NCBI RefSeq assembly: GCF_003144195.1
Contig: NW_020289998.1
Span: 498,862 to 562,861 of the forward strand
DNA from: Ceraceosorus guamensis
Taxonomy: Eukaryota > Basidiomycota > Exobasidiomycetes > Ceraceosorales > Ceraceosoraceae
Reading direction: 5' to 3'
DNA: 64,000 nucleotides
In this document: positions 3,001-29,521 of the stretch, in pieces
How the letters are laid out: the number at the start of each line of letters is the position of its first letter
Position numbering within the stretch: position 1 is the stretch's first letter
Position numbers and translations under genes: made by a program
The notes under the pieces: generated by a model
What the model was told of the DNA's origin: nothing
The model's database searches: none
What the model saw: the letters and a program-made list of their open reading frames with translations, nothing else

Positions 3001-6000
3001 GGCCGACTCACCTGCGTTGCTGACAGGTCTACACTTGAAGTAGCGGGTACGACATCGCTTGCCACGGACGAGGCGCCGAGGTCAATCGACGACATTGCAT
3101 CGGTAATGGTCTGCACAACGCTCGCGATAATAGAAGAGAGGCTCGCGGTAACCGGGATGGAAGACACAACAGGTGCTGGAATGCTGGCTGAAAGGGACAA
3201 ACCAGCTGAGGCCGACTCAGAATCGAGGTCTGGTAGGCTTATGGTCGCAGACAAGGAAGGGTCGATACCTGTCATTCCCAAGTCTGCGGAAGAAAGACCA
3301 CCCTGGCTGCCGGGTACTGATGGTAAGATTGTGGCAAGAGAGGTTGCTTGGGGCAGACCGCCCGACTCAGACAGATCTGCTGAGAATGACACAGCAAAGC
3401 CCGAGGTCGAGGAAGGCGAAGAGAGCGTCAACGAAATGTCCACGCCAGGCGCAGAAATCTGCAGGGAAGCGTCCGGCGCGATGTTGCTTGCTGCTGGAAG
3501 GCCAGCAGTCACGCTGGTGACCCCTGGGTCTGCAACATCCGTGGTCGAGAGCGGAGCACCGATGCTGAGGGAAATGGAGCCGTCGACCGCAGTGGGAAGC
3601 GCAGCGCTTCCGCTAATCGACAGAGATGGCAGTATGCCGCCGCCGACTCCCTGCTTCAGAGTGAGGTGAGAGTCAGCCACCTAGGAAGGGACATCTCCGC
3701 GAGGCTCATGTGTGTGCACTTACCGCGTCCGACAAAGAGAGCCCCACCGAGGCCAGAGGGGAGTCGCCAGCGGTGGTCGGCGCCACCTGAGATAGAAGAG
3801 ATGACGCAGACTGTAACAATGACGTTGCATCTTGAGGCGGATTCAAAGAGCCTGGTAGCGAGACCGTGCTAGCTCCAGGGAGGGCCAGACTTGGCTCGCT
3901 GCCCTGCTCAGTGGAGCCGAGACCCAGCAATGAGCTTGCTGTAGAGAGGGCTTGACTGGCTTCGGAAAGGACTGCGCTGGCAATGCTGGTGGTAAGCGGC
4001 TCATTCGCGGCCGTTCCAGGTCCGAGCTCTGATGTTGCGTCGCCCACAGCAGAGGTCAGTCCGTCGACGAGACTTGTGGGGGACGGAACATCCAACGATG
4101 CACTGAGGCCCAGTGAAGCTGAGACCGAGGAATCGACGAGGGGGACCGAAACAGCTGGTGACGGGTCCTCAAGAGTGATTGAGCCATCGCCTAAGCTTAC
4201 TCCCAACGAAGCTCCCGCGGATGCGGTTGGAATAGCGTTGGTCACCGTCGACGTGATATCGCCGGCCAGTGTCGTCACCTGACTTCCACAGCCTCCGAAC
4301 GGTCCAAGGGCAAGACACAAAATGCTGCTCAGAATACCTGTACTCGTGGGTTCGGCGACAGGTGCACTGGTAAGATCTGGCGTTCCTGTTGGCTGCGCTG
4401 CGGCATTCGTGTTGGAGGCCAAGCCAGCCAGAGAGGATGCAACTCCTGCAGCGGAAGCGGAAGCGCCTGACGTGGCGAAAGAGGTGAGGTCGCCGGGACT
4501 TAAGGCGGTTGACGCCGGATTAGCTATTGACAGAGAAGGAGCCAGGCTTGCTGCTGCCTGCGCCGACGCAACGCTTGCCAGAGATGCCGATAGAGCCGCT
4601 TGCGCTTCTGCGCTGAGGACGGAAGCGCTCGCTGCGGACTGAGCAGCTGCTAGTGAGGAAGCCGCGTCTGCCGCAGAGATCGCTGACGCGACGCTAGCTA
4701 GCGAAGATGATGCTGAAGCCGCCGCCACAGAGGCCTCGCTTGCAAGGGAGAGCGAAGCTTGAACGCTGGCAAGTGATTGAGAGGCAACGGCTGCATCGGA
4801 TGCCAAACTAGCCGCCGCGAGCTCAGAAGCGACGCTGGCCAGCGAAATCGAGGCTTGCGAGGCAGCCACAGATGCTGCACTGGCGATGGATAACGAAGAA
4901 GCTGCGCTGGCGGCAGCACGTGATGCCGAGGCCGCAAGATCCGATGCTATACTGACGCTAGCAAGGGACGAGAGTCGACTAGATTCCGCTTGAGCTTCTG
5001 AAAGCACTGAAGCTGCCGAAAGCTCGGACGCCACGCTCTGCAGCGAAGCAAGACTTGCCAGCGAGACTCTGCTCGCTTCTGCTGAGGCCGCTGAAAGCGC
5101 TGAGGCCACGGAAGCCTCCGAAGCAATGCTTTGCACTGAGGCTAGAGACAACGACGCAGCCAGCTCTGCTGAGACACTTGCCGCCGATAAAGATGACAGA
5201 CGACTGGCCTCGGCTTGCCCAGCCGACAAGACCGAGGCAACAGACGCCTGAGATGCTAGACCTGCAATAGAAGCCCTGCTTGCTTCTGCCTGTGCTGCTG
5301 ATAGCACAGAGGCAGCCGATGCCTGCGATACTAAGCTCTGCACAGAAGCTAGCGACAGCGACGCTTCAGCCGCTACGCTCGCAGCCGAAATGGAACTGAT
5401 GCGGCTCGCTTCTGCTTGTGCGGCTGACAACACCGACGCTACCGATGCCTGCGAAGCGATGCTCTGCACTGAGGCCAACGACAGCGATGCCGCCAAGTCC
5501 GAAGCCACGCTGGCGGCTGAAATTGATGAGATGCGACTTGCCTCCGCTGCTTGACTCGCAGCGGAAATAGCGCTGGCTATGGAGGCCTGCGATGCAATGC
5601 TTTGTGCCGCTGCTAAAGATAAAGACGCCGAAAGCTCTGCTGCTACGCTAGCCTCTGAAATGGACGAGATCCGACTGGCTTCAGCTTGACTTGCAGCCGA
5701 AAGAGCGCTTGCTACAGAAGCCTGTGAGGCGACACTTTGGACTGACGCCAGTGACAAAGATGCCGACAATTGTGAAGCCACGCTGGCTGCTGAGATGGAT
5801 GAGACTCTGCTAGCCTCGGCGGCGGCGGATAGAGCAGAGGCGACAGAGGCTTGGGAAAGTACCGACGCAACCGAGGCTTGCGATGCAACGCTGGCAATCG
5901 AGGCTGACGAGATCGACGCGGCGAGCGCAGAGGCAACGCTGGCTTGAGATGCTGCAGCGACTTCCGAGGCGACGCTTGCGGCACTAGCAGCTGATATTGA

Positions 6001-9000
6001 TGAAGCGACGCTCGCAAGAGAGGCTTGGACACTTGCTGCCGAGACTGATGAAGCCACGCTTGCAAGGGACGCTTGAGCACTGACGGAAGACAGAGAAGCA
6101 GCCACACTTGCCTCGCTGGCGACGCTTGAGAGCGAGGCGGCCTCAGAGGCTCTAGACAGCGCAGATGCAACACTTGCTTGCGAGGCGAGGCTGGCAATTG
6201 AGGCTGCAGCATTTGCGGCGGAGATTGATTGGGCCAAGCTGGCCGCGCTGATTGAAGAGGCGACTGATGCTGCTGATGCCGCTGAAAGTGAGGATGCAAC
6301 CGAGGCTGCGCTGACGGATGACAACGATGAGGCAACAGAGGCTACCGATGCCTCAGAAAGTGAGGATGCCACGGAGGCTGCGCTGACGGATGACAAAGAA
6401 GAAGCAACGGAGGCTGCTGAAGCTGCTGCCGATGCAACTGATGCAGCCGAAAGCGACGAGGCTACCGAGGCTGCACTGACGGACGATAAAGATGATGCAA
6501 CCGAGGCGGCCGAGGCAGCAGCTGATGCTACGGATGCGGCCGAAAGTGATGCGGCGACGGAGGCAGCGCTGACGGACGAGAGAGACGAAGCTAGCGAAGC
6601 CGCCGACGCAGCAGCTGATGCGACTGACGCAGCCGAAAGCGACGAGGCTACTGACGCTGCGCTGACCGATGAAAGGGAGGAAGCGACCGAGGCGGCTGAG
6701 GCAGCAGCCGATGCCACGGATGCGGCGGATAGAGACGAGGCAACCGAGGCGGCTGATGCTGCTGCTTGTTCTGCAGACAGAGCAGCGGCGGAAGAGGCCG
6801 AGAGAACAGAGGCGATGCTGGCTTGACTTGCGGCAGCTCTAGAGACTGAGGCGACAGACTCTGAAGAAACGCTGGCGAGAGAGGCGAGAGAAGCAATGCT
6901 AGCGGCCGATGCTTGGGCCTGTTGGGCAGAGAGCACAGAAGCAGCGGAAGCTGCTGCTTGTTGCGCTGAGAGGACTGAAGCTGAAGACGCTGAGAGTACC
7001 GATGCGACGCTGGCCTGACTCGCCGCGGCTCGAGAGACGGAGGCTACCGACTCTGATGAGACGCTCGCGAGACTGGCGAGCGATGCTACGCTGGCCAGTG
7101 ATGCAGCCGACGCTTGCGCCAATTGAGCTGAGAGAACGGAGGCAGCTGAAGCTGCGGCTTGAGAGGCGGAGAGGACCGAAGCTACGCTGGCTTGACTTGC
7201 TGCGGCTCGAGAGACCGATGCGACTGATTCGGATGAAACGCTTGCGACACTAGCAAGAGAGGCAGCGCTCTCTGCCGCCTGTTGGACCGAAAGGACGGAC
7301 GCTGAAGACGCCGCGGCCAACTGAGCGGAGAGAATGCTTGCGCTTGCAGCAGCTCGTGAAACCGAAGCCACAGACTCTGACGAGACGCTGGCAACACTGG
7401 CGAGGGAGGCGGCATTTGCCAGCGACGCTGCGCTTGCTGCGGCTTGTTGGACCGAGAGAACTGATGCCGAAGACGCTGCCGCTAGCTGAGCTGAGAGGAT
7501 GCTTGCGCTGGCGGCTGCACGAGATACAGATGCCACAGATTCTGAGGAGATACTGGCCAAGCTCGCTGATGCAGCCGCGCTTGCTGCGGCAGCGACCGAG
7601 GCCGAGGAGACGCTTGCGATACTAGCCTGTACGGCAGCGCTGGCAGCAGCAGCAGCAGAGACGGATGAAACGCTAGCGATGCTTGCTAATGAGGCTGCAC
7701 TGGCGGCAGCAGCAGCAGAGACCGATGAAACGCTTGCGATGCTTGCTAGCGAGGCTGCACTGGCAGCAGCAGCAGCAGAGACCGATGAAACGCTTGCAAC
7801 ACTGGCCACTGAGGCTGCGCTGGCAGCCGCAGCAGCGGAAGCTGACGAGGCACTGGCTACGCTGGCGAGCGAGGCAGCGTTTGCGACGCTCTGGACGCTC
7901 TGCACACTTGCTACGCTCGCGAGTGATGCCGCGCTGGCAGCCGCAGCAGCGGAAGCTGACGAGGCACTGGCTACGCTGGCGAGCGAGGCAGCATTCGCGA
8001 CGCTCTGTACGCTCTGCACACTTGCCACGCTCGCGAGCGACGCCGCACTTGCAGCGGCGGCGGCCGAGGCAGAAGAAGCACTGGCCACGCTTGCCAGCGA
8101 GGCAGCATTCGCGACACTCTGTACGCTCTGCACACTTGCTACGCTCGCCAGTGATGCCGCGCTTGCGGCGGCATTTGCAGAGGCCGAGGAGGCACTAGCG
8201 ATACTGGCGAGCGACGCGGCATTTGCGACGCTTTGAACGCTCTGTACACTAGCTACACTGGCCAGCGAGGCAGAACTTGCAGCCGCTGCCGAAGCAGCAG
8301 AAGACGCGCTCGCCGCACTCGCGAGAGATGCAGCGTTAGCTACGCTCTGGACGCTTTGAACGCTAGCAAGGGAAGCAGCGCTGGCTGCCGCAGCGGCGGC
8401 AGAAATCGAAGAAGCGCTGGCAACGCTCGCCAAAGAAGCTGCATTAGCCGCGCTCTGAACACTCTGCACGCTTGCCAAAGACGCCGCGGAAGCCGCACTG
8501 GCAGCACTGGCGGCGCTGACACTTGCCCGAGAGACGGAGGCGACCGAAGCCGAAGATACACTTGCCAGACTGGCCAGACTGGCCGCACTGGCAACTGATG
8601 CTGATGAAGCGCTGGCTATGCTGGCAAGACTGGCGGCCGATGCTGCCGAGGCCACAGAAGCAGCGCTAGCAGCCGAAGCCGCGCTCGCAGCACTAGCAGA
8701 GGATGCTGCCGCTCCGTTCGACGTTGTGGTCGCACCCCCCGATCCACATCCTCCCAATACACCTCCTAGCACATCGCAGAACACCGTGCTGGCGATACCT
8801 CCCGTTCCAGTAGAAGTCTGCTCGCGGTATGGAACGGTCAGATCAGCATGTGTTGGTTCGATCAGCAAGCCGTCGTTGGTCGTGGCTGCATCCGGTTTCC
8901 AAACAGGTTCCGCTCCATCCAAATTCATGCACTCACAGATGTGGTTTTGGGAGCTGCCACCAGCCGACGGTCGATAGTTGGAGTCGGAGCAGGACCTGCC

Positions 9001-9056
9001 TGTACGGCTTGTACAACCACCGCTGCCGCAAGAGCCGCGCGCACGAGATTGACCAT
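1..9056 (-). CDS. Giant secreted Ala/Ser-rich repeat protein (3' end beyond window)
   Basis: I recognise no named family. Six exons fit: 9056-8937, 8817-3724, 3650-3012, 2938-2842, 2772-2671 and 2545 to beyond the left edge, all with GT-AG introns of 69-125 nt and consistent phase; at least 2,850 residues are encoded. The start is chosen because it gives a signal peptide (MVNLVRAALAAAVVVQAVQA) directly before a good donor. Roughly 1,390 residues (about 8700 down to 4500) are almost only Ala and Ser, with Val/Leu/Ile/Gln typically every third residue and larger blocks repeating. A short Cys/Gly motif (C..LG..GGCGS) occurs just before this block (near 8760) and again just after it (near 4300). 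The remainder is a less repetitive Ser/Leu/Thr/Pro-rich region, open to the edge. It is likely extracellular or wall-associated. The secretion call is good; the role is unknown. The 5.1-kb exon 2 has no intron. Confidence 0.8.
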
Positions 9057-11493
9057 TTCTTCGCGAGTCGAAACAGAGAACGAGCGGTCGTCAGCTCGTT
9101 GAGGGGTTGTCGCACAACACCTGGCGCCTGGTCACTCGCGCACTGATCGCGTACATACTTGAAAGTCTCGTGCTCTTTCCTACAATCTATTCCTTCACCC
9201 TCCGCGATTGACAGGCCCCTGCTCGCCCGCCCTCCTGATTGAATGGATTTCCCAGATGATCGCTGCCGCTGAGCCGTTCTCCGGCCAGGTGTCGCAAATA
9301 AGAGTTGGTGAAGATCGAGAGTTGATGAGGAAAGCAAGCAGGAGTGGGCGGAACTAAGAAGAAGAAGATGGATGAGACGAGCAAGCAAGGCAAGCAAGAA
9401 GCGCAAGAACGAGAAAAGGAAAAAGAGGGTGTGTGGCTACGGTCGGATGATGAGGTTCAGGATCGATGAGGTGCTCGAGCAAGGACACAAATCTCTACAA
9501 TGAGCGCGGATGCTGATCGATCCTGTTTGCATCCGGATCTGCCGTGCTGAGCGGACGACCACTGCCAAGCGTGCCTTGACCGAAGATCTGCGCTCCTCGC
9601 ATCTGACGCATTCATTCGCTCACCTGGGCCAAGCTGAGCGCCATGCGCTGCTGGGGTACATAGCGCCAGACAAAAAATCCCGAGCTTGTACGCAGAACAC
9701 TTTGAGCCTGATGATCGATCCACACTAGACCGCGGTCGCCTTGCATGGCCTGGCTTCGGAAACATAGCGACGTATTGACACATGTACGTAAGCCGTTCGG
9801 GCTTTGTTGCGCAAGAAGGACTTCGAGAGGCACCTCGCGGATCGAGCCAGGATTGCTGCTCAAGATCATGCGCATTGACCATGCGGCGTTCGAGCCAGCG
9901 GCGTGGCTTTGGTCGCATGCGGAAAGAGATTGCGGATCTTGATTACGTCGGCCTTTCAAAACGCTGTGCGGTACGGTATCGGGCTGGGCGTGTGCAACGT
10001 TAGATGTCAAAGTCGGAGCACGAACATTGAATGTTGCGTGGACCACACAACCCGCCTACATCCTGCCTGGCTGATGAGATGTGAGACATGTCGTCGATTC
10101 TGTCGCGCAAGCCTAGCGGAGTCGCAGTACCTGGCCCGGGCGATTGTTGCCATTCGCCTGAACACTGGACCGCTGAGGAAGACGCGCTTTGGTACCGACC
10201 GTTGCTGACCCACAGCCGGTACTGTACTGCTACTACTGCAAGCTGCTCTGCCGTTCTGTGCGAGTCTTCCCATCTATAGGTACAGCATGGCTTCCCACAT
10301 TCACGATGCCTTGCCCTAGGCTCCGTCTCGCGCGCGCATTTCGTTTTTCCACTGATCAATTTCTGGTGGCCTGGAGCTATCGATCGAGTTACTGCATGGG
10401 CTCCTTGCCGATGCAAGCCATATGATTGTGAGACGTGTGGCGGAGGATGGTAGGTCAGGCCGAGTGGTTAAGATGAATTCCGTTGGAGCGCCTTCTTTGC
10501 ATGCATCAGGCAGAAAGTCGAAACGAGTCCAGATGCGTTCTGGCCCTTTTGGATGAGGGAACAGTGGAACGAATGGGTGAGACATGTAGGCTTGTTGCCG
10601 CGCCAAAATCAATTCACGACTGATAGCTGGTCAAGTGGCAGCGCACCGCCGCACCGCGCGCGATCGCGCGATCGATCGAGACGTTGACGGACCGCGCGGG
10701 CCGCGAGTAAATGCGCGCGGGGAAATCTATCGTACGTACGTGACGACCGCGCGGATCAACACGCGCCCAATATAAATTTATGTCCAGAAATGAAATCACG
10801 AATGAGGGAATAGATGAAATTAAGGCCACATCCACCGACCCAATTTTGAAGCCCGATCACCGCATGCGGCAAGAGCCGAGCAACATCACCTCCTCGGCTC
10901 GCGCGACACATGAGCGTGGCCATGCTGGGTGCGTGGGAACTTTTGGAACACCGCTCATATAGCCGGAGGGCCAATGTACCAGCAGCAGCGGTCATGTGAG
11001 TGTGAGTGTGAGTACCGTCCGCGTTGGTCTGCTATAGGCTTCGTGTTAGATCATGCCTGGAACAAAGCTGAGCCAAGCAGCAAGCTCAGCCCTCCCGCCA
11101 TTAGTGCAGCTCAAGCACTTCAGTACGGTGCATGAGTCCTGTCGGAGCCAGTCCGCTGTCAAGTCGCCCAGAGGAACGAAGAGGCCGGATATCGCGTCGG
11201 ACGCGAATTTGGGTGCGTGGATGTTGCTGTGTGCGCCTTTTGGAGCGGAGTGTGCTTCAGCATTCAGGCAGCTGAACGAGACGCCGCTTCTGCTCGACAA
11301 TCATCTCAGCATACATACTGCGGTAGAACACACACAAAGTCATCCACGCGACCAACCAAATCCGGAAGTGGATATCTTTGCGGAAGGCTCAGGAACAAGG
11401 CGTGACGAACCATCGTACTCAAGAGCTGGATCCCGTCACTGAGAAGGAGACTGAGCAATCATAGGCCTCGCAAGCAACGACGATAGGCAAACG
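9057..11493. other. Divergent intergenic spacer, no convincing gene
   Basis: This 2.4-kb spacer separates the divergent starts of the Ala/Ser-rich gene and the luciferase-like gene. Open frames here are short, overlap on both strands and match no family I know. It holds a CG-rich patch with GATCGATC and CGTACGTACG words around 10650-10745, an AT-rich AATATAAATTTA at about 10767-10780, and a tRNA A-box-like stretch near 10457 that lacks a matching B box. Confidence 0.6.
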
Positions 11494-12792
11494 ATGAGCG
11501 GGCCTACTGGGGCATTGAAGCATGTGCAAAGCTCGATGGAAAGTGTGGCTGGGCTAGCCAAAGGTCTGTACGCGCGAGCACCGGCCAGCACGGCCACTCT
11601 TTTGTCCCTCTTGTTGTCCTACCTGATCACGACTGCTCGATCAGACTACGTGCTGTATCGCAGTCTGGGCGTGGGAGGCCTTGCGCCTCCCGGTCCCATA
11701 GGCTGGTTGGTGCACACGTTCATTCTTCGGCCTCTTGCCATGTCATCAGGTCGAGAGAAGGATCCCGAAAGATTGCCGGTCTCGGATGAGCAGGTGCAGG
11801 GGCAAAGCTTGTCACTAGATCTTCCAAAAAGAAAGGGAAATGCTCCATTTACTTTTGGTCTCATGCCTCATAGACAATTGGACCAGACTTTGCCCGAAGA
11901 TGGCGCGATGCAAAAGGTGAGACATGCTGTGGGTACTTCCACCACCCGGTCGCCCAATCGTCTGCATTGCAACTCTCGCAATGGGGGCGGCGGCGCTGTG
12001 GTGAGGTAGAGCTTGTTGGCTTATGTCACGCTCAAGACTATGCAGGTACGCAAGATCCAAGTAGCTTGTGACGGACAAGCCACTCACCCACTGGCCGGCC
12101 GAACTGGACAGTTGAGCCCCGATATTCATGCGGCGGTCTCACCGATGCTGACCCCTTGCCGTTACACTTCGTCCCCACATCCTCTTCCTTCCACCACCTC
12201 TCCCTCGCGTTGTCCTTCGCGACGCCATGTCCAGGCTCTCGCATCTCACTTCAACAAGCTAGCCACGCTCAACGTCAATCTCCGTCCAAGCATTTCCGTT
12301 CTCGAAGCGCACAACTCTCCCAGCTTGCAAGTGCAGCACTCGCCCAAGGACATTAGCGCAACACAAATCCATTCCTACGCCCGGCTCTTTCTGTCCGGTC
12401 TGCACGCTCCTCGATCCGACGTTTCTTCGCCTCTCAAAGAATTCGCTCATATCCATCTGCACGACGGATCATTGCACCTCGTCCTCTCCCCCTCGCACGC
12501 CCGCATCGTGCTTGCTCAAGGATGGGGAGAATTGCACAGACTGGCGGGCGCATTCTACAGAGGTCATTGGTGGCCTCTTTTCATCCTGCCCAAGTGGCTG
12601 GCAAACGATGCAAAGGCTAGATGGGGCTATCTGGCCCAAAGAGCTCAGAGCTCCAGCAAGGCTGTGCTGCTGCCTCCTACGTACCTCATGATCTACGCTC
12701 CTAGGGACGAGGAAGAGCTGCAGCACGTCAAGCGCATCATCGATGCTGCCGCAGCTTTTGCTCTTGGTCACGAGCCGATCTCAGAGCCTTAG
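11494..12792 (+). CDS. Fungal luciferase-like-domain membrane protein
   Basis: Two exons, 11494-11916 and 12235-12792, give 326 residues. The N-terminal third has a hydrophobic segment (about residues 33-50, LLSLLLSYLITTARS) and a second one (PIGWLVHTFILRPLA), so membrane attachment is likely. It is followed by GLMPHRQLDQ and, in exon 2, the conserved core of the fungal luciferase-like domain: EFAHIHLHDGSLHLVLS, GWGELHRLAG, and near the C-terminus MIYAPRDEEEL. This domain is common in fungal proteins of unknown activity; the name comes from distant similarity and does not imply light emission. The intron is 318 nt, long for this window, and could hide a 9-nt exon (near 12046-12054). It converges on the acid phosphatase gene with a 150-bp gap. 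Confidence 0.85.
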
Positions 12793-18943: not shown

Positions 18944-19636
18944 CTACGAGTCGAGAGACTATGCGAAAAGCAGGCGAGGAGTGTGAGTTGCCAGTCTGCG
19001 CAATGAGCTCCAGCACGCTTATCCTCCTCCTCACCTTTTCTAGCTGAGTCTTCAGAACCATGCGCCAGTAGGACTTGATCTGCACAGTGCTCCTTCCACC
19101 GCATTGCTCGCTCATGCGCGTCCAGTCAACGTGTGCCATGCCGGCTTCGCACATGCCGAGTACGAGTGCCTTTTTCTCCGAAGGCTGGAAAGCAGACGAG
19201 CGGCTCCATGTCAGCATGCTCCATGCGGGCAGAGCGTTCCTCTTCTGACCTTCCAAGCTGTCCTTGCTCCGCCACGCTTGCTGCTCTGTCCCTGCTCCTC
19301 GAGTTCAGAACGTTTATCGTCGCGAGGTTCAGGCTTGACTTTCATCGGACTGCGCTGAGTCGTAGAGCTCCTCGCCTCTTTCTTGGGAGTCTTGGACGCG
19401 CAAAATGAGGTGTCAGCGGCTGGATCTGAAGTCTTGACGAGTACAACTTTGGACTCAAAGTCAAGCTATCGAACACGAGGAGTGCTCGCTGTGACCGCGT
19501 TCCCGTCAAGTGTCTTGGCGTTGCTATGCAATCACCGCAATGCTTTGGGCTGGCGACTCACCGCTGAGAGCACACCCTCTGACTGCCGTTTAGTTGGTGT
19601 TGGAGGAGATCCAGACGGAGATGAGCCATGCTCCAT
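18944..19636 (-). CDS. Single-repeat Myb/SANT-like small protein, paralogue 1
   Basis: Four exons: 19636-19562 (25 codons), 19390-19250 (47), 19184-19035 (50), 18958-18944 (SLDS plus stop); all junctions are phase 0 and the product is 126 residues. Exon 2 is Lys/Pro/Glu-rich (TPKKEARS, SPMKVKPEP) and ends in AWK. Exon 3 holds the SANT-like core: EKKALVLGMCEAG, VDWTRMSEQCGGR, QIKSYWRMVLK. The three aromatic anchors of a Myb repeat (W, W, YW) are present, the first split from the rest by an intron. The reading frame of exon 3 stays open to 18714, but the spliced end is preferred because three neighbouring paralogues share it. It is probably nuclear and DNA- or chromatin-binding, inferred from the fold and basic tail. 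SP-K-K motifs resemble minor-groove binders. Confidence 0.75.
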
Positions 19637-20532
19637 TTTAGGGTGTGAGATTTTGAGTTCCAAGGAGTGATAGCGGGTAGCAAAGCTCGAAGAGGGTAGC
19701 TAGAGGCATTCCTAGAGGCAAAATGGAGCAAAGCTCGCGACGCACGTTCGTGGTCATGACCATAGCAGTCTGATGAGTGAAAGATCTGTAACATCTAGCT
19801 ACGGGCAAGCGCGCCGAATGATCACAAATTTTCTCCTATCAATAATACACGGCTCCGCACTAGAAGGGCCCGAGGCAATAAAGGTCCATGCACGGGCAGC
19901 GGGCTCATCTTGTAATATCCAACCAAGCGACATACATACGCCTGAACATGACTCAGATTTCTGCACCCTTCAAAGTTCCACATTCACCGGTTTCAAAGAT
20001 CATTCAGCTATATATATAGCTGTGACTTTGCTCCATATGCGCGACTGCGCCTCGTAGGTATGGACTCGCATCACCGAGAGCGCAATTCAGCCGCACTCGT
20101 GACTGTACCACGCACAGCTGTGCTGCTCGAATCTTGAAGGTTGGCTCAAGGGCCTAAAGCTGTTCATTAAGATGTTCATTGAGACGGCATTTGTCACGAA
20201 TCTGCAGGAATTGCGCAGGTTGAGGAGTTGAAGGCGTGTACACAGAGTCGTAGAGAGAAGCGAAAAGCCGAGCAAGCTCGAACAGTGCACGAGACTAGCT
20301 AGATACGGCGTGCAACGAAAAGGTGCGTGGATGTGGGCGTCATGCTGATTGAGGGCCCGCTAAGATCGTGGAAATTATGAACAAAAGGGGACCGACAAGA
20401 CTCGCTTGCTCAATGCGTGAAGGTGGGCCTTGCGCCGACGACTGCATCATTTGGGATGCCTTCAAGTGCGTAGAGGGCTATTGGATTGTGCAACCGTCAG
20501 TGGCATGCCGGTGAATTGGAGCACTAATCATT
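19637..20532. other. Intergenic spacer between SANT-like paralogues 1 and 2
   Basis: This 0.9-kb spacer probably carries the promoter of paralogue 1. It contains TATATATAGC near 20012-20021. I see no further gene or degraded SANT copy. Confidence 0.45.
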
Positions 20533-21376
20533 CTACATCTCCTCAAGTGCCTGGGAGTGACGGCCGATGCGCGTTCAGCGTCAGATCGATCGGAGGTGGC
20601 TATGTTGGTCATTCCCATGCATTGGTTCACCCACCTTCTCGAGTTTCGGCTTGAGACGCATGTTCCAATAGGCCTTGATCTGAGTCTTGGTTCGACCGCC
20701 ACATTCTGCGGTAGCTTCGTCCCAATCTACTGCGGGAAAGCCCGCTGCGCACATCCTCATGACGAGCGCCTTCTTCTGAGCGCCCTGCGTCAGTTGGTCA
20801 ACATGAGCTCATGTTAGCGCGAGGCGCATGACCGTCTCCGTCGCTGATGGTGTCACTTACTGTCCACGCTTCGGCTTTACCGCCGCGCTTGTTCTTTCCA
20901 TCTTCATCTTTGACGTCCTCTTCGTATCCTTCGTCGTCCGCTTCAGGCTTGACCTTCTTCTTCTTGGGAGAGCCTCGAGGCTTTTTTTTGGCCGCGCTGT
21001 CCAAAGACATGGGCTACATGCAGGCGTGACCGTGTGCCAGCGTGCATACGGGAAGAGGTCGAGGCGGGAGGCAAGGAGCAAAAAGGGTCAGCGAGACCGA
21101 CGTTAAAGTCGCGTGTACGATGCAAGGCGAATCACGAATCTAGTATGTGAAGCTCAGACTTGGTCGAGTTGCGTTCTCAAAGCGAAATATTGCCTCTCGC
21201 TCGGCAGGAGTTCGTGGGATTTGCGTGCATCATTGCTTGTCTCAACATTGCTCGCATCGACTCACCGCCACGGAGAATGGGTCAAAGTCTGGCATGTTGC
21301 TGCGCTTCTTGGTAGGATTTACTGGAGTGGTGTCTTCTCCAGATGACGCTTCGCTTGCCGTCGGAGAGGTGCTCAT
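20533..21376 (-). CDS. Single-repeat Myb/SANT-like small protein, paralogue 2
   Basis: Exons 21376-21266 (37 codons), 21013-20861 (51), 20784-20635 (50) and 20550-20533 (ALEEM plus stop) join in phase 0 and give 143 residues. Exon 2 carries KKKPRGSPKKKKVKPE, a Glu/Asp run, and ends in AWT. Exon 3 is the SANT-like core (QKKALVMRMCAAG, VDWDEATAECGGRT, QIKAYWNMRLK). Architecture, intron phases and the 50-codon core exon match paralogue 1. Intron 1 is 252 nt; its acceptor (TAG before CCCATGTC) was chosen because the closer CAG breaks frame. The start is the ATG comparable to the other copies; an in-frame ATG at 21559 would add 61 Ser-rich residues. Predicted nuclear and DNA- or chromatin-associated by fold only. 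Confidence 0.75.
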
Positions 21377-23191
21377 GGTTGTCAAAAGAGGTGAAGCTGA
21401 TGATCTTGAAAAAATGACTGGCTGGCGCGACTGGACTGAGTCTGAGTGATCAGAGGACGAGGATGGCTGCGTGAAGGACGATGAGGTCGAGAAGGAATGT
21501 TTCGTACCCCTCCAAGGATCAGAGGTTGCTCGCGTTGCTTTGGACGTCTGACCAGACACATCGCGCAGGCTTGAATGAGAGACCGAGTACCAAAATGCAT
21601 CCTAGACCGATACTGTGTTATAGTCAGTTGATTGATGTTGCGTGTGCTACCACATGCTCAGTGAGACATGTAGTCTAGCAACGATCCAATCGCGTCAGAC
21701 GGTCAGAGAGGAGATAGACCGCGAGGCTGATCGCGCGTCGTCGCAACTCAAGCACATCAGCAGCCCTCGCACTCACGACTGGTCAAATCAATCACAATCA
21801 CGAATGGTGCATCACCGTGCAGCAATCAACCATGATAGATCCATACGTACATGATCGTGGACAGCAGGGAAGGAACATCTACTCGTGACTGCCCCTCGTC
21901 GTCTCCCGGCCAGCATGCAAGCACACTTGATTGGGCGCCCCGCGCTCGGTATGACGTGTCGCTCGCCTCTGTATATATGTGTAGCCAAACTCACTGACTC
22001 ACGTTCGCCACATCTACTGTTGACTTTTATTGTCACGACTGCAGCAATCTATTATACAATTGAATGCGCAGCAACACAAGGTGGGCGCAGTCACCCCTCG
22101 CTCTGTTTCAAATCCGGCAGAGCGCTCATCCAACAACTACGTCTACGCAGATGCACGGATGGACTTTGACTGCAATCAAGACGCACTATATAAGGATCTC
22201 AATCCACGATTGCAGAGGTGAAACGTGATGAATGTCAAAATAAAATTTGTGATTAGTATCGAAGTGAGTGCTTCAGGAGCTCGTGGAGGCATGGATGGAC
22301 TCGGGCTGACGATATATGTGGATGGTAGCCTCCCCACTCGTGACTGGATTCGCCAGTCGTGAGAACGCGGCTATCGCGAGGCGTCTCGAGACGGGTGTGC
22401 GTACAATCGTGAATGTGAATGAGATTCAGCAGTGACTCAAACTCCCAATCGTGATCCTTGATTCACGATCCACGTTTGTATGGAAATTCTGCGCGTGCAC
22501 GTCACGGCTGCATGCATAGTTCAGCCCCCAGGGACCTACACATGTGCATGCAAACCAGACAGCGCAGTATCGCAGTTAAATTGGCGCGACTCTGACTCGG
22601 GATTGGATGGATGTTGATTGATTCGCGCACATCCTGATCTGCGATGTGAAGGGCTGCTGCTGATCGCCCGGATGATCGACTCGTGACTTCGTTCAATCAT
22701 CAAATCGACTTGGTGATACAGATTCTGATTCGTGATTGTCATTGTTTATGCATGGCGCGCTCAATATCCCGCGCTGTGACTCGCCGTCAGACGTTTAGTC
22801 TGCATGATGAGCCTCGATCTAGCTTTGATGGGGGTCTGTCAATCAAGCCATCAAGGCGATGGGTGCATGGAGCAATCACAATCAATGCGACCCCTCGGCC
22901 GTGTAGATCACGCGCAAGGGTTTCCAAGAGTCGTCCAGACACGTCGTCTGAACTCGAACGCTGTATCGCAGGGGCTTGCGGTGATTGCAGGCGTGCAAAG
23001 GCGTTTGTCACGAACGTCTGACCGCTGTCCGCATATCTACAGAGGCTGCTGGTTGGTCTGTTCTATAGTTCATTCATGGATGCTGGATACGACTTTCTGT
23101 ATGCCTTTCACTCGTCCCACAACATCCCTGTCCCCGGCCACAATCTGCAATCGTAAATACCAGAACCACCGTCCAAGTCTTTGCTGGCACG
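21377..23191. promoter_or_regulatory. Divergent spacer between SANT-like paralogues 2 and 3
   Basis: This 1.8-kb spacer lies between divergently transcribed paralogues and should contain both promoters. It is rich in CGTGATT / TCACGA / GACTCG words, mainly at 21770-21860, 22360-22490 and 22680-22745. No supported gene lies within it. Confidence 0.5.
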
Positions 23192-23929
23192 ATGATCGGG
23201 TCTGATCTCTCCGCACCACCTTCACCAGCCGCCTCTCCACCGCCAAGCAAGAGAAAATCAGCACTGTCCGATGTAGACGTGAGTGCGGGCACGCTTTATG
23301 TACGTCGCTCGGGTGTTGATGTGCGATGCATTGAGATGCTTACGCCGCTTGACGAGCCTTAGTGTAGCATTTACTGACCTCGCACATTGCCCACATGCCG
23401 GCTCTAGGAGACGCCAAAGAAAGAGGCTCGACCTCCGAAGCCGAAGAAAAGCCCCAAGAAGAAGATCAAGATTGAGGCTGACAGACATGGCGAGCGTCAG
23501 AAACATGCTCAGGATCGGCCTGAAGAGGACCAAAAGCTCAAAGAAGGCAAGTGTGTTGGGAGAGGCACGGCCTGGACGGTGAGCGTGGCAATGCAGATGC
23601 GCATCTTCTCCTCCCTGACAGGAGCAGAGCTGACGAAAATTTGACGTATCGCGATGCTGCCATTCGTCACGCTCGCCACGCAGCCCGAAGAACGAAAAGC
23701 TGTTATCACTGCCCTCTGCGCCAAAGGGGCGGCCACTCTAGACTGGAGCGAGCTCAGCGATCAGTGCGGCAGTCGCACCCCTCAACAAATCAGGAACTAC
23801 TACAACATGGTGTTGAAGGGTCACATCGAAAAGGTGAGCCATGAAACCGTCAGTCAGCAGTGCAAACAAGCCTACAGAAGCTCATCATGCCCTCTCTCGT
23901 CTCGTGGTGCGCAGGCGTTTGAAAGCTAG
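23192..23929 (+). CDS. Single-repeat Myb/SANT-like small protein, paralogue 3
   Basis: Exons 23192-23278 (29 codons), 23408-23578 (57), 23684-23833 (50) and 23915-23929 (AFES plus stop), all phase 0, give 140 residues. The N-terminus is Pro/Ser-rich (APPSPAASPPPSKRK). Exon 2 starts ETPKKEARPP, has KSPKKKIKIE, and ends in AWT. The core exon reads EERKAVITALCAKG, LDWSELSDQCGSRT, QIRNYYNMVLK, so the third aromatic anchor is YY instead of YW. It shares the TPKKEAR start of exon 2 with paralogue 1, on the opposite strand. Function is inferred only: a small basic protein with one Myb-like helix unit, likely DNA- or chromatin-binding. Confidence 0.77.
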
Positions 23930-25043
23930 AGCATATATACGTCTCGTCGAAGGTGCGCTCGTGGCTCATTGCAAGGGCTCTTGGCAACATGCTCCCATTA
24001 CCTAGGCCAATCTCAATGTTCTCTCGAGCGAAGGGCAAAGAGCTCGCGAGCTTTGAAGAAGGTCAGCGCTTCAAGGAGAATCGCGCATGTCTGTCCCCTG
24101 CCGCAATCACAAAACCTTCTGCTTCCCTTCGAGGACGATTCATGCAAATGGCTGTGCTGCGCTTGATTTAACGTGACGATCACGAGCTCAGACTCGCGAA
24201 GACATGACCGATGTTGACGCGAGATTGTTGGATCTTCAGCAGATCCTGGGATGACCTTCACAGTGAGGAGAGGAGACCACTCGATTCTCATTGACGCCCG
24301 AACCTCGCTTGCTGGATCACGCACCACTGGATGAGGGCTGCTGCTGCCATGCAGCTGGTTGCCAAAGGGGAGCTCCAAGATGTCGCTTAGCTCGGTGTTG
24401 AGACGCACACGATTGGTGATTTAAATATCGCATTCAAGATTGATGACCTCTTTCCCCCTCGGCATGACAGCTATAAGCAGCATACCGGCACCAGCTAGTA
24501 TACACATGCACGCAGAGTTTGCGCGCGTGCCTGTGTTGTCGCCGTTAATCTGTTGCCTCCCGCGCGCGTGCTCATCAGAGCGGCCTTTCTACGTGAATAA
24601 TGAGCTGATTGCTAAGTCAGGTGAATCACGAAGGCGGCCTTTGATCATCATCTAAAGAAGCGCCTAGCTGGAGTCGCGATGCAAGAGGCTCAGAGCAGAC
24701 TTCGCGTACGGAGGCACGATTCATCATCAATCACGAATTGTTGTGGATTACCGAATCTGAATTGTGGTGAATGTGAACGTGATCGGTGCTCGCAGACTCG
24801 AAACATCTTGGTTGGTATATGCGCTATAATCGTGGACAGGCACTTGTGTCGACTTCCGTCTGAGTGCCGAGTCTGATGCATCTCTTCTTCTGCAGCAGCA
24901 GCACCGCATTGCTCTTCATTGCTCTTATTGCCCTTCCTCCATCTTGCCTCCCTTCAGGACTTCAGCCCCCCGCCCTTTAGCTTCTACCAGTCAACACGTC
25001 AACAAGCAGTCAAGCGCATTCTCGACACTTCTCGAAGAAGAGG
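23930..25043. other. Spacer between SANT-like paralogues 3 and 4
   Basis: This 1.1-kb spacer probably holds the promoter of paralogue 4. The last 150 bases (about 24890-25040) are strongly pyrimidine-rich on the + strand with CTCTTCATTGCTCTT, as in many fungal promoters. I see no additional gene or SANT remnant. Confidence 0.45.
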
Positions 25044-26161
25044 ATGAAGAGCGGACCGACCGATGATGTGCAGCAAGAAGAGGAAGACGCCATGGACAGC
25101 AGCGCGCCAGAAGACAACTGCTTTGAAAAATTGATCAACCAGAGTACGAAGGTGCGTCCGTCATTGAGGGGGCAGTGTGGGGGACGTACGACTATGAGAA
25201 GAGGTAGCTAGGTGACCCATGGGCCTGGTGAGGTAGTCCGAGCTCGTTGTGGACTTCCGATGGCACACCCACTGCCATAACTAGGTACCAACTCTCCAAA
25301 GAAGAGCAGCTCCTCTCCTGTCGCTGACGCAAAGGCCTCTCTCTTTTTTTCCGTTGCTCTCACAGCTCAAATCGAAGAAACAGGCTAGAGCGTTGGCGAG
25401 CCCCAAGAAGAGGGCTGTGTCAAGCTTAGAAGACGAGGAAATGGACGAGGCACAATGTGCGTCGCCATTGGCGTCCTCGAGACGCACTGCAAAGGTGCGT
25501 CGCAAGAGCGGAGCTGTTGAAGAAGGATGCAATGTCCTCAGGCAAGAGTGGAAGGAACTATGGCGAGACTTTCACAAATCATGTCGTTGATTGTTGCGAC
25601 CGCCGCGCATGATGCTGATTCAGCGCTTCTCCCGCCCACGCCGTTCTCTTCGCAGGGCACTCCTAACAAAACTACTTCTGCACGACTCTCAACAGGTCAG
25701 ACCAGTCCAAAGAAGAGGCCTGCACCAAAGAAAGAGATCGATGAAGAGATGAATGAAGCGAGCTCTCCTAACAAAAAGCGTCCGCAGACGGGCCAAGCAG
25801 CAAGTGCATGGACCGTGAGTATTAACCCGCGACCTGATCTGCGCGCCTTACGACGTTCCACACGTTTACAAGCTCTAGTCCACGTATGCGCTCATGCAGG
25901 CGGAGCAACGCAAAGACATGGTCATGAGCATGTGCGACCTGGGTTATCCTGCCATGGACTGGGCTGCTCTCGGCCAGAGGTGCGGCGGACGCACAGGGGT
26001 GCAAGCTAGAGACTACTGGCGAAAGGTCATGAAGCCAAAGCTTGCTAATGTGAGCTGAAATACGATGGGCTGGCTGGCACTGTGGAAAATACTCGCAACA
26101 AAGCTGTCGCACGTTACTGACCTGAATGTATCGGTGTCTGCAGATGCTAGAGCAAAGCTAG
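25044..26161 (+). CDS. Single-repeat Myb/SANT-like protein, paralogue 4, with duplicated basic exon
   Basis: Five exons: 25044-25151 (36 codons), 25366-25494 (43), 25656-25814 (53), 25900-26049 (50), 26144-26161 (MLEQS plus stop); all phase 0, 187 residues. Exons 2 and 3 look like copies of one exon: each has SPKKR, then (D/E)EEM(D/N)EA, then a SP pair. Exon 3 ends in AWT like its counterparts. Exon 4 is the 50-codon SANT-like core (EQRKDMVMSMCDLG, MDWAALGQRCGGRT, RDYWRKVMK). An alternative start at 25581 would join exon 3 directly and give a protein shaped like the other three, so two isoforms or an annexed extra exon pair are possible. Function inferred as for the other copies. Confidence 0.72.
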
Positions 26162-27451: not shown

Positions 27452-27915
27452 GATCAGGTGCACCGGCCCGCGCGCGTAATTGTGAGCGAGCTGAACGCTA
27501 GCTGGACCTGCTGGTGCGCGTCGGGTTGAGCCTGTAGAGGCGATTGGCCCCTTTGAGGAGGATGAGGTGGAGGCTTTTTGGATGAGAGAACAGAGGCACG
27601 CATGTATGCATAGGCTGACCGGGATGATCAGTCAAGGCACGGGAGTCTTTCGAGCTGCCAGGCGCGAGATCGTGACGAGGTCCGTGCCTCTCGTGCGATA
27701 CAGCACGCAAAGAGAGAGAGAAAGAGGTTAGAAGGTCAAAATCTCGATTTTGCGCGCTGCTGCTTGACTGCCGGTCAGCCGCCCGCCTCCACACCCACTC
27801 ACTCAGCTCGATCAGCAGTCGGATTCGTCTTTGCTTTTTCTTCCAATTCAGATCACACCGACCATCCTCAACATTCCACCTCAGACAGGTCCTTCCTCAC
27901 GCTACCAAAACGCTC
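27452..27915. promoter_or_regulatory. Bidirectional promoter interval EMC5 / PUS4
   Basis: The 464-bp region between two divergent housekeeping genes probably contains both core promoters. Pyrimidine-rich stretches lie on the + strand before PUS4 (about 27830-27900). No TATA box is evident. Confidence 0.5.
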
Positions 27916-29521
27916 ATGGCCACGAGAAAGCTCCTTCAAAGCAGCTCTGCATTCGATTCGCTATTGTCTAGCAAAGTCCTCTCTCACATCAAGGCAAGGC
28001 GAGAGCCGATCGACATGCCGCCCGACAGACAGGGCGGTGGCAGTGGCAGCCGGATTGCGTCCCTCGACGATCGACCTCTCTCGGGCATCTTTGGCATCAA
28101 CAAACCGTCAGGTCCGCTGTCAATGGTGTTGCTGGACGACATCAAGGAGCTCTTCGCTTACAGTTCGTTATTCAAGAACCCGGATGGAAGTTTGCCCGCT
28201 GAGAACGGAGGCAGAGGCTGGAGGGGGGGCAAGAGGAAGACGGGATTGAGCAAGGCGGAGAGGAAAAAGAATGCTCCACCAAAGATTGGACAGGGTGGGA
28301 CGCTGGATCCTCTCGCTGACGGCGTGCTCGGTGAGTTCTCGGCGTCCAGCGCATATATTCATGATCCACACCTGCTGCTATCCTTGTTGCGTGAATCTCA
28401 TGTCCCGCACTCCCCATAAACACACACACAACAGTTGTCGGTGTCGGAAGAGGGACAAAGCAGCTGCAGCGCTTTTTGGATTGCACCAAAGAGTACCGTT
28501 CCACCGGCTTGCTGGGAACAGCAACGACCTCGTACGACTGCAAGGATCCTATCCTTCTTCGCGCGCCTTTTCAGCATGTTTCTCGAGAGACCATCTTGGA
28601 AGCCCTACCTCGTTTTCGAGGGGACCTGAAGCAACTACCACCCTTGTTCAGCGCCATCAAGATGGACGGCAAGAGGTTGTTCGACTATGCCAGAGAGGGA
28701 TCGGAGCTACCCAGACCCATCGAGCCAAGGAGTGTCCGCGTAGAACAACTGGAGCTGGTCGAGTGGCATCCCGCAGGGAGTCACGCGTGGGTGGAACCTG
28801 TCGAGGAGTGCGGAGAGGAGGAGAAAAAGCTGGTTGGAAGGGTGCGCAGGCTGGCAGGTCTAGATCCGAGTGCGCCAGGTACGGACGACGCTGCCTTGAG
28901 CGGCCAGAACGGAGCGTCGAGCTCGTTGATCGTAGAGAAAGAAGACGAGACAGGCCCAACGCCAGAAAAGGCGAGTTCCGGTCCGCCGGCATTTACAATC
29001 GACATGACGGTGACGAGCGGGACGTATGTGCGAAGCATAGTCCACGATCTGGCTCAATCGGTAGGCAGCGCTGCGCACGTGGTCAGACTGACGCGCAACA
29101 GGCAGGGAGAGTTCAGCATTGGCACGTTGGGATCAAAAGCGGACGTCACGGCAGGAGTGACACGCGACGCTTTCTCGGATAGCTTGCGGGATGACAACCG
29201 TGCGGAGAGGCAACACGCAGGGACTGGTGCGGACAGGGCGGGCGAGGTGAAGAACGGAGACATTGCCGAGCAGGACAAAGCAGCAAAGACGAGCAAGGAC
29301 GTCGCATTGCCGGGCAATTGTATCGAGTGGCACGTTTTTGAAAAGGCCTTGAAAGAGTTCGAAGAGGACACAGTGGAGCGCGACGAGCAAGGCTTGGCTG
29401 AATGGGAACGAATCTTGCTAAGCAGGTGAGCAGGGCAACGCGCATTCTGGAACAACAAGTCATTTCGCATGCCACTAACTACGGCTCTGTGTACTGCTCG
29501 TTCAGAATTCAGCCCTGTTGA
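27916..29521 (+). CDS. PUS4: tRNA pseudouridine-55 synthase, TruB family
   Basis: Exons 27916-28330 and 28435 onward. It makes pseudouridine 55 in the T-loop of tRNAs. The TruB landmarks are clear: GIFGINKPSGPLS near the N-terminus, the catalytic loop GGTLDPLADGVLG with Asp131, then VVGVGRGTKQLQ across the intron, KEYRSTGLLG, PPLFSAIKMDGKRL and SGTYVRSIVHDLA. Charged insertions of about 80 and 60 residues set it apart from bacterial TruB, as in fungal Pus4. Two 3' ends are possible. Unspliced, the frame stops at 29429 (469 residues). A third intron 29426-29505 (GTGAGC, branch CTAAC, TTCAG) would give IQPC and a stop at 29519-29521 (473 residues). It converges on UTP4. Confidence 0.93.

What the first reader, a model, noticed from the sequence alone, without database searches (positions are those of the whole stretch)
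18944..26161. Local family of four SANT/Myb-like genes with matching exon structure
Four genes in 7.2 kb, two minus then two plus, encode basic proteins with one Myb/SANT-like unit. In all four the first Trp (AWT or AWK) ends one exon, the next exon is exactly 50 codons and holds the other aromatic anchors, every junction is phase 0, and a 4-5 codon final exon follows. SP-K-K motifs (SPKKKKVK, SPMKVK, SPKKKIK, SPKKR) precede the core. The proteins differ strongly outside these anchors, so this is an old, diversifying tandem family. It could be a lineage-specific set of chromatin or DNA-binding proteins.
Basis: partly seen in the sequence, partly recalled or inferred. Interest (0 to 1): 0.82.

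Follow-up and report, generated by a model that had tools for sequence, protein, structure and literature searches.

The report
Four-gene Myb family in a fungus
Four neighbouring genes in a basidiomycete fungus encode small proteins with one Myb-type fold each, a fold that often binds DNA; each has a counterpart in Ceraceosorus bombacis, and one of the four differs there far more than the rest in its Myb part.

Summary
Four genes (two minus, two plus; 18944-26161) encode 140-187 aa basic proteins with one C-terminal Myb/SANT unit. My gene models show each stated feature: AWT or AWK ends an exon, a 50-codon exon follows, then a 4-5 codon last exon, and 13 of 13 introns are phase 0. Four Ceraceosorus bombacis database proteins ('Myb-like domain'), one per gene, run continuously across 12 of 13 predicted junctions; exon 1 of gene 2 has no support. 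Five own-genome protein searches found family members only at this locus. The Myb assignment rests on Pfam (2 of 4 over cut-off), PDB profile matches and a confident three-helix model. Unexpected: against C. bombacis the Myb core is 92-96% identical in genes 1, 3 and 4 but 58% in gene 2 (22 of 53 against 9 of 159 differences, P 4.5e-9), while its N-terminus is not significantly faster (P 0.08). Best reading: small nuclear DNA-binding Myb paralogues older than the split from C. bombacis, gene 2 under altered selection. New member of a known kind; function untested.

The parts
19562..19636 (-). g1 exon 1 (25 codons)
   Evidence: P0001 residues 1-24 match here
19250..19465 (-). g1 exon 2 (72 codons; TPKKEAR, SPMKVKPE, ends AWK)
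   Evidence: 56 of 72 same in P0001; weak donor GTCAGA; acceptor at 19465 is the least certain of this gene
19035..19184 (-). g1 Myb core exon, 50 codons
   Evidence: 48 of 50 same in P0001
18944..18958 (-). g1 last exon SLDS*
   Evidence: 4 of 4 same in P0001
21266..21376 (-). g2 exon 1 (37 codons), uncertain; translation may start in exon 2 instead
   Evidence: not supported by P0004, which starts at the place of exon 2
20861..21013 (-). g2 exon 2 (51 codons; SPKKKKVKPE, ends AWT)
   Evidence: 34 of 49 aligned same in P0004
20635..20784 (-). g2 Myb core exon, 50 codons, the fast-changing copy
   Evidence: 28 of 50 same in P0004
20533..20550 (-). g2 last exon ALEEM*
   Evidence: 5 of 5 same in P0004
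23192..23278 (+). g3 exon 1 (29 codons)
   Evidence: 27 of 29 same in P0003
23408..23578 (+). g3 exon 2 (57 codons; TPKKEAR, SPKKKIKIE, ends AWT)
   Evidence: 44 of 57 same in P0003
23684..23833 (+). g3 Myb core exon, 50 codons
   Evidence: 46 of 50 same in P0003; protein over two Pfam Myb cut-offs
23915..23929 (+). g3 last exon AFES*
   Evidence: 3 of 4 same in P0003 (TFES)
25044..25151 (+). g4 exon 1 (36 codons)
   Evidence: 31 of 36 same in P0002
25366..25494 (+). g4 exon 2 (43 codons, SPKKR)
   Evidence: 36 of 43 same in P0002
25656..25814 (+). g4 exon 3 (53 codons, SPKKR, ends AWT)
   Evidence: 41 of 53 same in P0002
25900..26049 (+). g4 Myb core exon, 50 codons
   Evidence: 48 of 50 same in P0002
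26144..26161 (+). g4 last exon MLEQS*
   Evidence: 5 of 5 same in P0002

Best explanation
A locus of four old paralogous genes, shared with Ceraceosorus bombacis, encodes small nuclear proteins made of a mostly disordered N-terminus (with a basic SPxK/PKKK stretch that would serve for nuclear import and as a CDK target) and one C-terminal Myb domain whose third helix is basic and would sit in the DNA major groove. The four copies keep the scaffold but differ at the positions that read bases in c-Myb, so they most likely bind different short DNA sites, or the same sites with different strength, as regulators or chromatin architectural proteins. Copy g2 has changed its Myb domain far more than the others since the split from C. 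bombacis, through relaxed constraint or changed specificity. Shown: gene structure, homology, sequence family and predicted fold, locus-only occurrence in this genome as far as searched, counterparts in C. bombacis, the contrast in differences. Inferred: nuclear import, CDK control, DNA binding, the role.
For: Gene models and phases; counterparts with continuous junctions; own-genome occurrence. Profile of the four domains against PDB sequences: 23 distinct sequences at E<=1, 22 of them Myb/SANT-type by name or by my knowledge; c-Myb 1h88 at E 3.8e-7, which sums three repeats each weak alone; single-unit chains 2cu7 (KIAA1915) 1.6e-4 and WER 7fdl 2.5e-4. g1 and g3 pass a Pfam Myb cut-off. AlphaFold model of P0001: three helices, block mean pLDDT 83-94 over residues 101-159. 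Nearest solved structures are mostly Myb, SANT and homeodomain proteins. Helix-3 net charge +2 to +5 in 8 of 8. [ST]Px[KR] motifs in 4 of 4 N-termini, 10 in total against a shuffled mean of 1.46, reached in 0 of 20,000 shuffles, which treat the related copies as independent.
Confidence: 0.58

Rival explanations
1. SANT-type protein-interaction modules: the C-terminal domain binds a histone tail or a partner helix, as in FLASH/YARP with NPAT, and the N-terminus only tethers the protein to chromatin.
For: Single C-terminal SANT/Myb domain; the best single-unit PDB sequence match is the KIAA1915 SANT domain; structure rows include Ada2-like, KIAA1915, CoREST and BAF chains. PMC7432317 (abstract start, passages) describes a SANT/Myb domain near the C-terminus of FLASH and YARP that binds the NPAT C-terminus and, by modelling, might also bind DNA.
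Against: Helix 3 is basic in 8 of 8, whereas SANT domains tend to be acidic there (recalled); DNA-binding Mybs make up most of the PDB sequence matches.
Confidence: 0.28
2. Concerning g2 only: g2 and P0004 are not orthologues, or one of them is a decaying or exon-converted copy, so that the divergent Myb core does not show fast change of one gene.
For: P0004 is annotated with only 107 aa and nothing matching g2 exon 1; the pair is not resolved in the tree.
Against: Their exon 2 is 34 of 49 identical and the last exon 5 of 5; no other family member of either species is closer than 57% to either core, so no donor of a recent conversion is seen; frame and splice ends of g2 are intact; 10 of the 12 columns invariant in the other six cores are unchanged between g2 and P0004 (P 0.046).
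Confidence: 0.3
3. Telomere-binding or transposon-derived Myb proteins.
Against: 140-187 aa, one Myb, no other Pfam domain over its cut-off, so neither the TRFH-plus-Myb nor the two-Myb design; no transposase family among 29 chosen ORFs of the window; the window lies at least 118 kb from either end of its contig.
Confidence: 0.06

Closest known systems
Ceraceosorus bombacis 'Myb-like domain' proteins P0001-P0004
   Same: One counterpart per gene, continuous across 12 of 13 predicted junctions, each on a contig of 819,692 bases, presumably the same one
   Different: Core 92-96% identical for g1, g3, g4 but 58% for g2; P0004 lacks exon 1
R2R3/3R Myb proteins (c-Myb, WER)
   Same: Profile match, three helices, third helix of the type GRT-x-x-Q-I-K-x-Y-W
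   Different: One unit only, C-terminal, split by a phase-0 intron just after the first Trp; two invariant Cys
SANT domains (Ada2-like, KIAA1915, CoREST)
   Same: Similar fold; KIAA1915 is the best single-unit sequence match
   Different: Basic third helix here
UmTay1 / UmTrf2 telomere Myb proteins of Ustilago maydis (PMC7744550, passages)
   Same: Myb domain, same subphylum
   Different: Those are large and have two Mybs (Tay1) or a TRFH domain (Trf2)

Membership tests
Pfam Myb_DNA-binding (PF00249) | Whole-protein score over the curated cut-off 24.4 | tested here: inconclusive
   g1 26.0 and g3 35.6 pass; g4 16.2 and g2 12.6 do not; P0001 and P0003 carry PF00249 by precomputed annotation, P0002 none
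Pfam Myb_DNA-bind_6 (PF13921) | Score over the cut-off 22.9 | tested here: inconclusive
   g3 28.8 passes; g1 15.2 and g2 15.9 do not; g4 not listed; P0004 carries PF13921 by precomputed annotation
Myb/SANT fold | Three helices with three spaced aromatic anchors | tested here: met
   Helices 106-119, 126-132, 138-158 in the P0001 model; columns 2 and 24 Trp in 8 of 8, column 43 Trp in 6 and Tyr in 2
DNA-binding Myb | Basic third helix | tested here: met
   Net charge +2 to +5 over core columns 35-53 in 8 of 8
DNA-binding Myb | Sequence-specific DNA binding | not testable with these tools
   Needs EMSA or a protein-binding array
SANT domain | Binding of histone tails or partner proteins | not testable with these tools
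   Needs a binding assay
R2R3-Myb | Two or three adjacent Myb units | tested here: not met
   One Myb match in each of the four models
TRF/Tay1 telomere proteins | TRFH domain plus Myb, or two Mybs | tested here: not met
   140-187 aa with one Myb and no other Pfam domain over its cut-off

The most novel reading that the evidence does not exclude
g2 is a rapidly evolving Myb chromatin protein whose DNA-reading surface is being rewritten between related Ceraceosorus species (letters at the c-Myb contact columns K-A-N-M against K-M-R-N) while its three linked paralogues are frozen: a fungal case of arms-race DNA binding, tracking changing repeats or a selfish element.
Probability: 0.12. Interest if true: 0.65.

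Novelty: new member of a known kind. Interest (0 to 1): 0.38.

Why it matters
It gives a compact natural series: four linked Myb paralogues with the same exon design, three conserved against C. bombacis and one strongly changed. If g2 proves to have changed DNA specificity, it would be a tractable case of rapid evolution of a DNA-binding domain in fungi. Otherwise it is a modest, locally confined family of probable nuclear proteins that the database names only 'Myb-like domain'.

Tried and rejected
The protein database with g2 alone gave nothing (28 candidates, none at E<=1); the alignment of all four (A3) gave the four C. bombacis proteins among 3771 candidates; the eight-row alignment returned only two of them among 2820 candidates, so absence elsewhere is weak evidence. 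Pfam Myb searches of the own genome gave 28 matches (with g1, g3, g4 but not g2) and 21 matches (with g3 alone of this family); I translated 10 of the 65 loci and saw by eye no further member; C42 (L027, L030) has its unit split at another place. One match outside the locus (contig C2, E 0.046, along the N-terminal part, with a stop inside) I took for chance. Whether the g2 changes concentrate in helix 3 was tested and is not significant (7 of 13 columns, P 0.24). NG86 dS was not computable in 5 of 6 paralogue pairs and YN00 failed in 6 of 6; no C. bombacis DNA was at hand, so selection in g2 is not proven. Repeats in 18.5-26.7 kb gave short, imperfect pairs, several of them shared coding stretches. 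Literature searches showed in their listings (titles and abstract starts) no paper on this family; a DOI recalled for the C. bombacis genome paper is not held; PMC11687029 (passages) gave no genome data that identify the window. Fold searches alone would not separate Myb from homeodomain; TetR-type rows also appear.
Full report
The window lies in a 23.8 Mb, 199-contig assembly, at 498862-562861 of a 681,627-base contig. I rebuilt the four genes from the sequence (g3 and g4, g2, g1). The stated features are there: two minus genes, then two plus genes; Trp plus one residue at an exon end; a 50-codon core exon in 4 of 4; a last exon of 4 or 5 codons; 13 of 13 introns in phase 0 and GT-AG. The donor of g1 intron 2 is weak, 3 of 13 introns lack a CTRAY site, and g3 intron 3 could be read through in frame.

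The four cores are homologous. g2, g3 and g4 as queries find the other cores at E 7.5e-6 to 6.7e-13; identities of the cores over 53 columns are 38-55%. Codon second positions are 56-74% identical and third positions 28-42%, as expected for long constraint on the protein. Five own-genome protein searches (with g4, g3 and g2; with P0004 and P0001) found family members only at this locus; one further match, on contig C2, had E 0.046 and a stop inside. These searches score only the best candidates. Two Pfam searches (28 and 21 matches) show other Myb genes elsewhere; I read 10 of the 65 loci and saw no further member.

Outside evidence came from the protein database. An alignment of the four proteins returned four proteins at E<=1 among 3771 candidates, all from Ceraceosorus bombacis, named 'Myb-like domain' by their source, each with a longest contig of 819,692 bases, presumably one and the same. 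They pair one to one: P0001 with g1, P0004 with g2, P0003 with g3, P0002 with g4. In the tree the g1, g3 and g4 pairs have support 88/94, 99/98 and 100/99; the g2 pair is unresolved and rests on exon 2 (34 of 49 the same) and the last exon (5 of 5). Predicted junctions run through in 12 of 13; the script flagged the thirteenth, g2's first, as well, but only 2 residues of that exon aligned. The C. bombacis proteins are gene models whose evidence I have not seen. The window most likely comes from another Ceraceosorus species or strain; I did not establish which. Ceraceosorus belongs to Ustilaginomycotina, Exobasidiomycetes, Ceraceosorales.

What the domain is: the four-row profile matches 23 distinct PDB sequences at E<=1, of which 22 are Myb/SANT-type by name or by my knowledge. 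The lowest value, c-Myb 1h88 at 3.8e-7, sums three repeats that are weak alone; among single-unit chains the best are the KIAA1915 SANT domain 2cu7 (1.6e-4) and WER 7fdl (2.5e-4). g1 and g3 pass the PF00249 cut-off, g2 and g4 do not. AlphaFold gives three helices for the 50-residue g2 exon alone (mean pLDDT 82.9) and for the whole domain in P0001 (block means 83-94 over residues 101-159); residues 1-100 have block means of 42-62. The nearest solved structures are mostly Myb, SANT and homeodomain proteins, none with a decisive score. The third helix carries net charge +2 to +5 in 8 of 8 sequences. At the columns aligned with c-Myb K182, N183, N186, S187 (base contacts recalled, not tested here) the paralogues g1 to g4 read KSRM, KANM, RNNM and RDRK; C. 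bombacis has the same letters in g1, g3 and g4, and KMRN in g2.

N-termini: [ST]Px[KR] sites number 3, 1, 2 and 4, in total 10 against a shuffled mean of 1.46 (0 of 20,000 shuffles reach it); psi-K-x-E sites occur in 3 of 4, in total 4 against 0.60 (P 0.003). The shuffles treat related copies as independent, so these values overstate the case. The motifs fit a basic import signal under CDK control, but this is an inference from short motifs; P0004 has no [ST]Px[KR], and P0003 has SSKKK where g3 has SPKKK, though it keeps TPKK (read).

The unexpected result is g2. Against C. bombacis the 53-column core differs at 2, 22, 4 and 3 positions in g1 to g4; g2 against the rest is 22 of 53 against 9 of 159, P 4.5e-9. 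The N-termini differ at 21 of 94, 15 of 48, 15 of 83 and 23 of 129 aligned columns; g2 against the rest P 0.084. So in g1, g3 and g4 the Myb core is the more conserved part (P 4.6e-5), while in g2 it is not (P 0.31). Of the 12 columns invariant in the other six cores, 10 are unchanged between g2 and P0004 (P 0.046), which speaks weakly against decay; the changes are not significantly concentrated in helix 3 (7 of 13 columns, P 0.24). Relaxed constraint, changed specificity or mistaken orthology remain open; the C. bombacis DNA would decide. [quoted passage not shown] One passage says that the selected regions discussed there are not homologous to other MADF proteins, so even that analogy does not show selection on the DNA-binding fold.

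Surroundings: 29 chosen ORFs of the window were scanned against Pfam (9, 10 each). Matches over a cut-off are TruB, Fungal_trans, Abhydrolase_3, Say1_Mug180, G-patch and 'Luciferase'; a WD40-like ORF matches many beta-propeller models, none over its cut-off; no transposase was listed. The locus looks like an ordinary genic region.

It is a real, locally confined Myb family shared with C. bombacis, a new member of a known kind, with one curious copy whose Myb core has changed strongly.

Noticed in passing
window 3706-9090 (-): An open frame of 1794 aa over tandem repeats with units of 18-186 bases and high AT skew (0.246 at 6001-8000), no Pfam domain; other-strand frames of 248-249 aa are open there too and the coding strand was not checked.
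   Followed up: no
window 20095-22686: The octamer ACTCGTGA occurs 12 times in the window (2.5 expected, 0 of 100 shuffles reach 12), 4 of them between g1 and g3; ATTCACGA occurs 7 times (1.9 expected, 0 of 100 reach 7). Both were picked by eye after reading the sequence.
   Followed up: partly
L027/L030 (G000 contig C42, 141717-141933): A Myb unit elsewhere in the genome is split between profile positions 21 and 22 by 97 bases, so another Myb gene here probably has an intron inside the unit, at a different place from this family.
   Followed up: partly
window 12010-12792 (+): ORF with Pfam 'Luciferase domain' PF17648, E 3.6e-17.
   Followed up: no
window 27676-29429 (+): TruB-type pseudouridine synthase spread over two overlapping frames (profile positions 4-23, then 24-135), so probably an intron lies between them.
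   Followed up: no
core columns 15 and 31 of the four genes: Two cysteines are invariant in 8 of 8 Myb cores; their role is unknown.
   Followed up: no
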